A stretch of 64,000 nucleotides of DNA, from assembly GCF_900215575.1 (NCBI RefSeq), contig NZ_OBEJ01000003.1, positions 62,001 to 126,000 of the forward strand, given 5' to 3'. Below the pieces are notes generated by a model. It was not told where the DNA came from and ran no database searches. It saw nothing but the letters and a program-made list of their open reading frames with translations. Within the stretch, counting starts at the first letter, position 1, and every line of letters starts with the position of its first letter. Origin of the DNA: Natronoarchaeum philippinense. Lineage in GTDB: Archaea > Halobacteriota > Halobacteria > Halobacteriales > Natronoarchaeaceae. Positions 42,781 through 45,053 of the stretch are shown here, one piece after another. Both the position numbers and the translations under genes were made by a program.

Positions 42781-43004
42781 CGTCCCGCCGACCGTCGGTA
42801 GCCTAGCACTGTTCCAGCAAGCGACAGCCGAGATGCAGCTAGAATCACCGACGTTTCTCCGAATGCGTTCGCCGAGGGCGAGCTTTCGCAGCAATCCGGC
42901 TGTAGATCGATGTCCGCACCGAATCGCCGAGTGCCCAGCGAGTGGTGACTCCTGCGACCGGGGCAGTGGCCGAGTCGCGGTCTACAGATAAACAAGGCGA
43001 GTGC

Positions 43005-43022
43005 CTCGGGGCTTGACCCCGA
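43005..43022. repeat. left-end palindrome of the IS element
   Basis: CTCGGGGCTTGACCCCGA forms a 6- to 7-bp stem (TCGGGG/CCCCGA) with a CTTGA loop. It lies 17 bases beyond the tnpA stop codon and is identical to the right-end copy. Confidence 0.65.
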
Positions 43023-43038
43023 AGGGTGAAGCCGACAC

Positions 43039-43437
43039 TTAGACGTGTTCTGTTCGTTCGATATACCGTTCAATCGTTTCGCTTGATACCTGTCCTGCCG
43101 TTCCGATGTAGTACGATTGCTCCCAGAATCCACCACCCCACAGATATTCTTCTCAGTACGATTCGTGCTGGCCCCACATCTCTCGCGCCGTAATGCTCTT
43201 GACAGTCCGTGCAATCTCGCTTGGCGCGTGTTTCGGGTGGGCAGAAAGGAACAGATGTACGTGGTCGGGGGAGATGTGCAACGACAGTATCTCGTAGCCG
43301 TACTTGTCGCACACGTCGCGGAAACTCGCTTCCAACGAGTTCTCGATTGGTTCGAGGATGCCGTGTCGGTACTTGGGACACCACACGAAGTGGTAGTTGA
43401 CGTTGTACACCGTGTGGTTCGACCGCTTCTCGCCCAT
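43039..43437 (-). pseudogene. tnpA: tnpA, IS200-like Y1 transposase with premature stop
   Basis: The frame from ATG 43437 gives 94 residues (MGEKRSNHTVYNVNYHFVWC on) with the metal-binding HUH motif PDHVHLF (H59, H61), then a TGA at 43153-43155. After the stop the same frame continues to a TAA at 43039-43041 with family sequence: LWGGGFWEQSYYIGT and the catalytic-tyrosine helix SSETIERYIERTE (Y125 of a 132-residue protein). The broken product therefore lacks the nucleophile. The TGA is one base from TGG, so a single G to A change is the simplest cause. Readthrough cannot be excluded. Confidence 0.85.
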
Positions 43438-43464
43438 ATCGTACCCACTCCACCAGCACAGTTA

Positions 43465-43485
43465 AGTATATCCAAAGGATATACT
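43465..43485. promoter_or_regulatory. perfect 9-bp inverted repeat between tnpA and tnpB operon
   Basis: AGTATATCC, AAA, GGATATACT: a perfect 9-base palindrome with a 3-base spacer. It contains TATA-like sequence in both orientations and sits 28 bases from the tnpA start and 6 bases from the DUF2080 gene start. It may be a shared promoter/operator or a transcript-leader hairpin. Confidence 0.55.
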
Positions 43486-43490
43486 CAGAT

Positions 43491-43646
43491 ATGGCGAATC
43501 GCTTTGAAATCGACGGCGAGGAAGTTCTCGACGGTGAAGTCAAACCGTTCGGGAACAGTGCCCACGTCACCGTCCCCAAACGCTGGCGTGGAGCCGACGT
43601 GAAAGTCGTCCGAACCACAGAACCCACCGAACAAGACGAAGAATGA
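43491..43646 (+). CDS. DUF2080-type transposon-associated small protein
   Basis: 51 residues starting MANRFEIDGEEVLDGEVKPF, with GNSAHVTVPKRWRGADVKVV in the middle. The pattern G-N-S-A-x-V-x-V-P-K is that of an AbrB/SpoVT-like half-fold, as in the DUF2080 proteins found next to archaeal tnpB genes. It could bind DNA, perhaps the palindrome just upstream. Its stop overlaps the tnpB start by 4 bases (ATGA), so the two are co-translated. Confidence 0.85.
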   Translation: MANRFEIDGEEVLDGEVKPFGNSAHVTVPKRWRGADVKVVRTTEPTEQDEE

Positions 43647-44920
43647 CCGACGCACAGGCTCTCGTCAAGACGCTGGACTTCCAACTCAATATCCAGAGTG
43701 ACAACGAGAGCCTGTTGTACGACGCCACGCTCGAAGCCCGCCGAGTGTACAACGAAACCATCCGTCTCGCCAAAGAAGGCGTGGACTGGAACGCGATTCC
43801 TGACCGCGTGGCCGACGACGCCCACCTCGTGAAGAACACGACTCAGCGCATCGTTGCGAAGGCTCTCGGCGCGATGGAGAACTACTACGAGTACGACGAC
43901 TTCGGACTGCCGAGCCACACCAAAGACGGCGCGTACCCGCTCCGAGCGAACTACAAGGAGGGGTACAATCTGTCGCTCACCGACGATGGCGACGTGGCGT
44001 TCCGAATCAGCGCGAAACCGTACAACCACGTCAAGGGCGTCCTCGAAGGGAGTGACGTTCACCTCGATATTCTCAAGAGCGCACTCGAAAGCGACGGGTG
44101 GAAGATTGGGACGGCAGAAGCCTTGTTCCACAACGACAACGCCGAGTTGCACGTCAACGTCACCAACACCGAGCAGACCGTTCGAGGCAAGCTGGACTCA
44201 CGAACGGTCGTCGGCGTGGACGTGAACGAGGACAACGTGGCTCTCACTGCACTCTCTGAGGATGGTGTCGAGGACACATTAGTTATTGGCTTCCCTGAAA
44301 TCAAGTTCGAGCGCCACCGCTACTTCACGATGCGGAAGCGCGTCCAGAACGCGGGGAAAGACAGTACCCACGACACGCTCGAAGGGCACAAAGAACGGTT
44401 TGTCCGTGACAGACTCCACAAGGTATCTCGGCACATCGTGGAGTGGAGCCAGCAGTTCGAGAAGCCGTGCATCGTCTTTGAAGACCTCAAAGAGATGCGC
44501 GACAGTATCGACTACGGCACTCGGATGAACCGACGCTTGCATCACCTCCCGTTCCGCGCCCTTCAGTTCTGTACGTCGTACAAAGCATCGTTCGAGGGCA
44601 TTCCGACAGGATGGATTAATCCTGAGTACACGAGTCAGCGGTGTCCGATATGTGGGCATACGGAACGGGCGAATCGGAACAAGAAGCGGTTCAAGTGCAA
44701 GGACTGTTCCCATCAAGGCCACAGCGACCGTGGTGCAAGCGTCAACATCGCCGTGAAAAGCATCAAGAAGCATCAGAAGTGGAATGTGCCCGCTCTCAAC
44801 AGCCTTCCTCAAGTTCAGAAGGTGCGACGGCGGGCATCGGGGGCCGTGGACGCCCCGACCGTGACCCACCCGACCGCCCGAGGCTATCAGGCCGATGGTC
44901 GGATGGGAGTGTCCGACTAA
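43643..44920 (+). CDS. tnpB: TnpB, RNA-guided nuclease family
   Basis: 425 residues, complete. The split RuvC site is intact: VVGVDVNED (D193), CIVFEDLKEMRD (E280) and SDRGASVNIA (D362). A four-cysteine zinc ribbon, CPIC (334-337) with CKDC (352-355), lies between the last two. TnpB proteins use an RNA made from the element's right end to cut the empty donor site and preserve the element. With tnpA inactive, this TnpB could still act in cis. An expected right-end RNA scaffold overlaps its 3' end. Length and motifs are standard for haloarchaeal IS605/IS1341 TnpB. Confidence 0.93.
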   Translation: MTDAQALVKTLDFQLNIQSDNESLLYDATLEARRVYNETIRLAKEGVDWNAIPDRVADDAHLVKNTTQRIVAKALGAMENYYEYDDFGLPSHTKDGAYPLRANYKEGYNLSLTDDGDVAFRISAKPYNHVKGVLEGSDVHLDILKSALESDGWKIGTAEALFHNDNAELHVNVTNTEQTVRGKLDSRTVVGVDVNEDNVALTALSEDGVEDTLVIGFPEIKFERHRYFTMRKRVQNAGKDSTHDTLEGHKERFVRDRLHKVSRHIVEWSQQFEKPCIVFEDLKEMRDSIDYGTRMNRRLHHLPFRALQFCTSYKASFEGIPTGWINPEYTSQRCPICGHTERANRNKKRFKCKDCSHQGHSDRGASVNIAVKSIKKHQKWNVPALNSLPQVQKVRRRASGAVDAPTVTHPTARGYQADGRMGVSD

Positions 44921-44955
44921 ACCACGGGAAGTCTCGGGGCTTGACCCCGAGGCGG
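44800..44955 (+). ncRNA. candidate right-end RNA (reRNA/omegaRNA) of TnpB
   Basis: By analogy with studied TnpB systems the guide scaffold spans the tnpB 3' end and the right element end, with the guide taken from flanking DNA beyond. Here that region includes the CTCGGGGCTTGACCCCGAG hairpin (44933-44951). The 5' limit is a guess and no promoter is visible. Confidence 0.35.
44933..44950. repeat. right-end palindrome of the IS element
   Basis: Identical to the left-end segment, 12 bases after the tnpB stop. The stem extends by one pair to CTCGGGG/CCCCGAG (to 44951), so this copy is the better hairpin. Confidence 0.65.
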
Positions 44956-45053
44956 TTCACAGCTTGTTCGTCGCCCGAACTGTCGCCGTCCACGGGGCTT
45001 CGACGGATGCCGTGCCATGCATACTTTTTAGCATTTCGTGCATAATCCGACGT

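What the first reader, a model, noticed from the sequence alone, without database searches (positions are those of the whole stretch)
43039..43437. tnpA killed by a single nonsense codon while tnpB is intact
The TGA at 43153-43155 removes the catalytic Tyr (Y125), but the downstream frame is still perfect, so the event is recent. TnpB with all RuvC residues (D193, E280, D362) remains, giving a stranded nuclease that may now only defend its own locus or be on the way to a host role.
Basis: seen in the sequence. Interest (0 to 1): 0.6.

Follow-up and report, generated by a model that had tools for sequence, protein, structure and literature searches.

The report
Jumping gene with a dead transposase
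A transposon in a salt-loving archaeon has recently lost its transposase to one stop codon while its RNA-guided nuclease stays whole, a state that is common in this transposon family and already described for related species.

Summary
The minus-strand tnpA at 43437-43039 has one in-frame TGA at 43155-43153 (codon 95 of 132), ahead of the tyrosine Y125; the remaining 37 codons are open. TnpB beside it (43643-44920) is open and keeps D193/E280/D362, its zinc cysteines and an overlapping guide-RNA gene. This is the assembly's only IS200-type TnpA; the assembly has four open TnpB genes. The element is an ordinary haloarchaeal IS200/IS605 transposon, stranded unless a TnpA arrives from outside. The break is young: no amino-acid change downstream against the sister copy, and at most about 0.4 of the terminal branch. 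It is not special: 40 of 86 alignable tnpA copies, this one included, cannot be read through, nearly all by independent tip events, and wholesale tnpA decay is in print for Haloquadratum (2011). Nothing supports a host role. More unusual is a by-product: 45-58 bp double-hairpin inserts that repeatedly enter the same few positions of tnpA, tnpB and the right-end palindrome in relatives. The window's element has none.

The parts
42981..42985 (+). TCTAC at the left boundary, the probable target and TAM
   Evidence: Conserved at the left boundary of about 50 printed relatives with variable flank outside; no empty site found, so the exact cut is inferred
43005..43022 (+). Left-end palindrome (CTCGGGG-CTTGA-CCCCGA)
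   Evidence: Read; shared with relatives
43039..43437 (-). tnpA, IS200-type (Y1) transposase gene, broken
   Evidence: Y1_Tnp PF01797 and NF033573; solved-structure match
43153..43155 (-). In-frame TGA, codon 95
43061..43063 (-). Codon of tyrosine Y125, downstream of the stop
   Evidence: Position from the frame; alignment to 2xm3
43491..43646 (+). DUF2080 transposon-associated small protein (51 aa)
   Evidence: PF09853 and NF033496; 95% mean column identity in 25 sequences
43643..44920 (+). tnpB, RNA-guided endonuclease gene, open, 425 aa
   Evidence: NF040570 127.7 bits against cut-off 100; PF07282; RuvC and zinc residues conserved
44784..44906 (+). Guide-RNA (omega/reRNA) gene body, sense overlapping transcript
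   Evidence: Rfam RF02657 sot2652, E 1.4e-8, 47.7 bits, below gathering score 61
44933..44951 (+). Right-end palindrome (CTCGGGG-CTTGA-CCCCGAG)
   Evidence: Read; shared with relatives
44955..44960 (+). Right end of the element (GTTCAC)
   Evidence: Sharp boundary in relatives
44961..44980 (+). Right flank that would form the guide
   Evidence: Inferred from the boundary; first 16 bases occur exactly only here in the assembly

Best explanation
This is one copy (about 42981-44960) of a widespread haloarchaeal IS200/IS605 transposon with divergent tnpA and DUF2080-tnpB. A recent nonsense mutation truncated TnpA after 94 residues. The fragment keeps the HUH motif but lacks the tyrosine that cuts and joins DNA, so the copy should not excise or insert itself, and no other IS200-type TnpA in the assembly could help. 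TnpB and its overlapping guide RNA remain intact. By published TnpB biology, an RNA ending in the right flank would direct cutting of chromosome copies that lack the element, so the stranded copy could still keep itself fixed by homing. The break, the intact TnpB and the lack of another TnpA are shown by sequence; the loss of mobility and the homing are inferred. It is on the ordinary path of decay that many relatives show.
For: One TGA before Y125; only Y1_Tnp place in the genome; TnpB domains, RuvC residues and guide-RNA match; element ends as in relatives; downstream frame with 0 nonsynonymous and 5 silent differences to the sister; 40 of 86 tnpA copies unreadable by mostly independent events; same state reported for other haloarchaea (PMC3119063, passages).
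Against: The assembly is 95.7% complete, so a TnpA could be missing from it. No reads, RNA or protein data. The TAM and cutting were not tested. The dating bound is loose.
Confidence: 0.9

Rival explanations
1. The stop is a sequencing or assembly error and tnpA is functional.
For: The downstream frame is perfect and codons 96-132 show no amino-acid change against L038.
Against: Two of three codon positions differ from the sister copy, so a single miscalled base from that state does not suffice; real breaks are common in this family. A one-base error from another leucine codon is not excluded.
Confidence: 0.05
2. The TGA is read through or bypassed and full-length TnpA is still made.
For: Open frame after the stop; thirteen relatives have a TGA inside an insert with an otherwise conserved frame.
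Against: No relative among 85 has a stop at codon 95; the TGA-bearing inserts in relatives are independent recent events, not inherited recoding signals; no ATG, GTG or TTG restart in frame after the stop. Youth alone explains the open frame.
Confidence: 0.02
3. TnpB is being kept for a host function such as defence or gene regulation, with tnpA loss as the first step.
For: TnpB is under purifying selection against its nearest relatives (dN/dS 0.10-0.15 in the core); in tnpB-anchored data tnpA is dead with tnpB intact in 34 cases against 5 for the reverse.
Against: That asymmetry shrinks to 6 against 3 in a tnpA-anchored sample of 80; the insertion was not seen in the congener; tnpA-dead copies form no clades; selection on TnpB is also expected from its role in the transposon.
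Confidence: 0.03

Closest known systems
Haloarchaeal IS200/IS605 (IS605-type, ISH12-like) transposons
   Same: Gene content, divergent tnpA and tnpB, near-terminal palindromes, ends; up to about 91% DNA identity
   Different: tnpA broken by its own nonsense codon; no near-identical copy known in the collections searched
Disrupted tnpA and tnpA-less tnpB of Haloquadratum and Natronomonas (PMC3119063)
   Same: TnpB elements without working TnpA: disrupted tnpA 15 of 15 and 16 of 17; 35 of 38 Natronomonas tnpB unlinked to tnpA
   Different: There most tnpB of Haloquadratum are broken too; here TnpB is intact
ISDra2 TnpA/TnpB
   Same: HUH plus Tyr transposase fold; TnpB with RuvC residues and guide RNA at the right end (PMC8612924, passages)
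   Different: TAM there is TTGAT; here TCTAC is inferred and untested; the ISDra2 TnpA is whole

Membership tests
IS200/IS605 transposon | Y1 (HUH) TnpA gene | tested here: met
   PF01797 and NF033573; gene present but truncated by a stop
IS200/IS605 transposon | Functional TnpA with catalytic tyrosine | tested here: not met
   TGA at codon 95, before Y125
IS200/IS605 transposon | Near-terminal palindromes and defined ends without inverted repeats | tested here: met
IS200/IS605 transposon | Insertion next to a fixed target motif, empty site restored | tested here: inconclusive
   TCTAC conserved at the left boundary; no empty site found
TnpB RNA-guided endonuclease | RuvC triad and zinc ribbon | tested here: met
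   D193, E280, D362 and C334/C337/C352/C355
TnpB RNA-guided endonuclease | Guide RNA overlapping the 3' end of tnpB | tested here: met
   sot2652 match E 1.4e-8, though under Rfam's gathering score; depressed dS in the tail
TnpB RNA-guided endonuclease | TAM-dependent guided DNA cutting | not testable with these tools
   Needs an assay
Domesticated TnpB | Same locus kept across species | tested here: not met
   One congener only: left-flank match stops within DUF5783, no right-flank match there, only short element matches

The most novel reading that the evidence does not exclude
In haloarchaea the IS605 module drifts repeatedly from transposon to self-fixing nuclease: TnpA is lost again and again (stops, frameshifts, and mobile double-hairpin inserts that hit the same sites), while TnpB and its guide RNA persist by homing within polyploid genomes. 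Loss of tnpA would then be tolerated or favoured rather than terminal, and this copy is a fresh example.
Probability: 0.15. Interest if true: 0.5.

Novelty: new member of a known kind. Interest (0 to 1): 0.15.

Why it matters
By itself it matters little: it is one more broken tnpA beside an intact tnpB. It shows how such a break can be dated against a sister copy, and the census puts a number on how many copies in this family have a tnpA that cannot be read through (40 of 86 alignable). If stranded TnpB copies persist by homing in polyploid archaea, elements like this one are natural test material, because transposition is already off.

Tried and rejected
Rejected: double-hairpin inserts as introns or bypassed segments. 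Thirteen tnpA copies carry an insert with a TGA and low dN/dS downstream (0.093), which first looked like recoding. The tree spoke against it: insert presence at base 157 changes 14 times for 17 rows, TGA-bearing inserts 12 times for 13 rows, and L087 sits about 1% from L179 and L180 (without). They look like recent, independent insertions.

Rejected: selective loss of tnpA as a firm result. The tnpB-anchored sample gave 34 to 5; a tnpA-anchored sample of 80 gave 6 to 3, with 2 short and 2 cut tnpB. That sample was taken mostly down the E-value list (which favours intact tnpA), skipping identical copies. A first pass called 37 tnpB 'broken' through a coverage threshold; most of these were an artefact of local alignment length, redone. 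One row (L358) counted as tnpB intact had been marked cut.

Led nowhere: empty-site test of the TAM in the genus of L070's species; structure of DUF2080 (mean pLDDT 54; no fold search run); Rfam on four double-hairpin loci (no match); tRNA scan of the window (none). Paper searches that showed nothing on 45-58 bp double hairpins in haloarchaeal IS605 genes: (listings and starts of abstracts; two papers searched for passages); supplements were not readable.

Rows dropped: 15 of 101 distinct tnpA regions (identity under 70% or more than 3 indel events); 39 duplicates and 5 loci with too little upstream sequence in the gene-content count. Start codons were not scored; tnpB was scored over codons 1-380 only.

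Full report
What was checked. The minus-strand frame 43437-43039 is an IS200-type transposase gene with one in-frame TGA at 43155-43153, codon 95. The genome search for Y1_Tnp finds this single place in the 3.16-Mb assembly (11 contigs, 95.7% complete), with one TGA inside. With X at the stop the protein matches solved TnpA structures across residues 4-128, and Y125 aligns with the tyrosine near the C terminus of ISDra2 TnpA. H59 and H61 form the HUH motif; H59, H61 and Y125 are conserved in 84, 86 and 83 of 86 rows. The truncated product of 94 residues lacks the tyrosine helix. The ORF list shows no ATG, GTG or TTG restart in that frame after the stop at its 50-residue limit, and none is visible in the frame as read.

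The rest of the element. DUF2080 (43491-43646) and TnpB (43643-44920) follow on the plus strand, with stop and start overlapping. TnpB scores above the NCBIfam guided_TnpB cut-off and keeps D193, E280, D362 and four zinc cysteines. Rfam's sot2652 family, a sense overlapping transcript, matches 44784-44906 at E 1.4e-8 but below its gathering score. Against the nearest rows (eight listed, five distinct) the tnpB tail, codons 371-425, has lower dS (0.13-0.22) and higher dN (0.10-0.12) than the core (dS 0.28-0.37, dN about 0.04), as expected where the DNA also encodes a structured RNA (inference). Element ends: relatives share GTTCAC at the right and TCTACAG at the left, with variable flanks outside. 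The right flank would be the guide; its first 16 bases occur exactly only here, with six 2-mismatch places against three matches for the reversed-pattern control.

How old is the stop. The nearest tnpA is L038 (same element as L108, Haloferax larsenii), 94% identical. After codon 95 the two differ at five silent sites and no amino acid. Polarised with nine near rows, the window branch has 15 base changes: two in codon 95, four nonsynonymous (three residues) and nine silent; a simple likelihood bound gives at most about 0.4 of the branch spent without selection.

How unusual is it. 133 loci with a tnpA match gave 101 distinct regions, of which 86 were alignable. Of these, 40 are open without inserts, 6 are open with an in-frame insert, 16 are closed only by an insert, and 24, the window included, are broken by a stop or frameshift. 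On the maximum-likelihood tree the 24 broken rows need 22 changes: breaks are tip events and do not found clades. In this largely tnpB-anchored sample tnpA is dead with tnpB intact in 34, the reverse in 5, both broken in 3, both sound in 39, tnpB partial in 5. A tnpA-anchored sample of 80 gave 6, 3, 2 and 65, plus 2 short and 2 cut, so preferential tnpA loss is not established. Of 127 distinct tnpB loci with enough upstream sequence, 33 have no tnpA nearby. The 2011 comparison of two Haloquadratum strains already reports disrupted tnpA in 15 of 15 and 16 of 17, and 35 of 38 Natronomonas tnpB not linked to a tnpA (PMC3119063, passages read).

Mechanism. TnpA is essential and TnpB dispensable for movement, and TnpB with its guide cuts the joined donor site so that repair can restore the element (PMC8612924, passages). 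IS200/605 TnpB can act as a gene drive in multicopy plasmids (PMC11870625, preprint, abstract and outline). Haloarchaea are polyploid (recalled). Hence a stranded copy may still be kept by homing; that step is inferred. A host role has no support: the congener's match to the left flank ends within the DUF5783 gene, it has no match to the right flank there and only short matches to the element, and its own single TnpA is open beside a fragmented TnpB (L335).

By-product. While counting stops I found short inserts at exact, recurrent positions in relatives: 45-mers at tnpA base 57 (5 rows), 50-51-mers at 64 (9), 53-54-mers at 157 (17) and 54-55-mers at 206 (3), out of 86 rows; and 54-56-mers at tnpB base 1182/1183 (12) and 53-58-mers inside the right-end palindrome at 1296/1297 (16), out of 137 distinct tnpB rows. 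By eye each consists of two hairpins. For 24 representatives of the 54-58 bp kind 99.0% of pair cells are paired, with 65 double-change cells against 19.3 in shuffles. The 54-58 bp kind sits in one orientation relative to the element (read). A covariance model finds matches in 35 of 40 haloarchaeal genomes, but both strands are counted and some matches look like native terminal hairpins of other TnpB families. These look like tiny mobile palindromes with strong site preference that often disable tnpA. The window's element has none; the sister L038 has one in tnpA, one in tnpB and, from its right-end alignment, one in the palindrome.

Noticed in passing
L038, L047, L054, L061, L096, L182 and others (window-equivalent 43231, 43278, 43370, 43376, 44824 and the right-end palindrome near 44940): 45-58 bp double-hairpin inserts at exact recurrent positions of tnpA, tnpB and the right-end palindrome; strongly covarying stems, mostly independent gains on the tnpA tree, no Rfam match. 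Possibly a site-preferring mobile palindrome that disables IS605 transposases; no description found in the paper searches run.
   Followed up: partly
G000:C1:839591-839648 (L230): A short relic in the window's own genome: left and right ends of the same transposon family fused, with a double hairpin inside the palindrome, like the terminal-only elements described for Haloquadratum.
   Followed up: partly
G000:C2:355943-356536, C3:251969-252547, C3:455753-456208: Three further, diverged open TnpB genes (29-34% identity) in a genome without an intact IS200-type TnpA.
   Followed up: no
43491-43646: DUF2080 is the most conserved gene of the element (95% mean column identity in 25 sequences) and persists in 5 tnpB loci without tnpA. 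Its sequence recalls AbrB-type DNA-binding proteins (recalled); the predicted model was too poor to test this.
   Followed up: partly
L087 (Haloarcula amylolytica contig), tnpB region: Two 90-base duplications each ending in N inside tnpB, probably assembly joins rather than biology.
   Followed up: no
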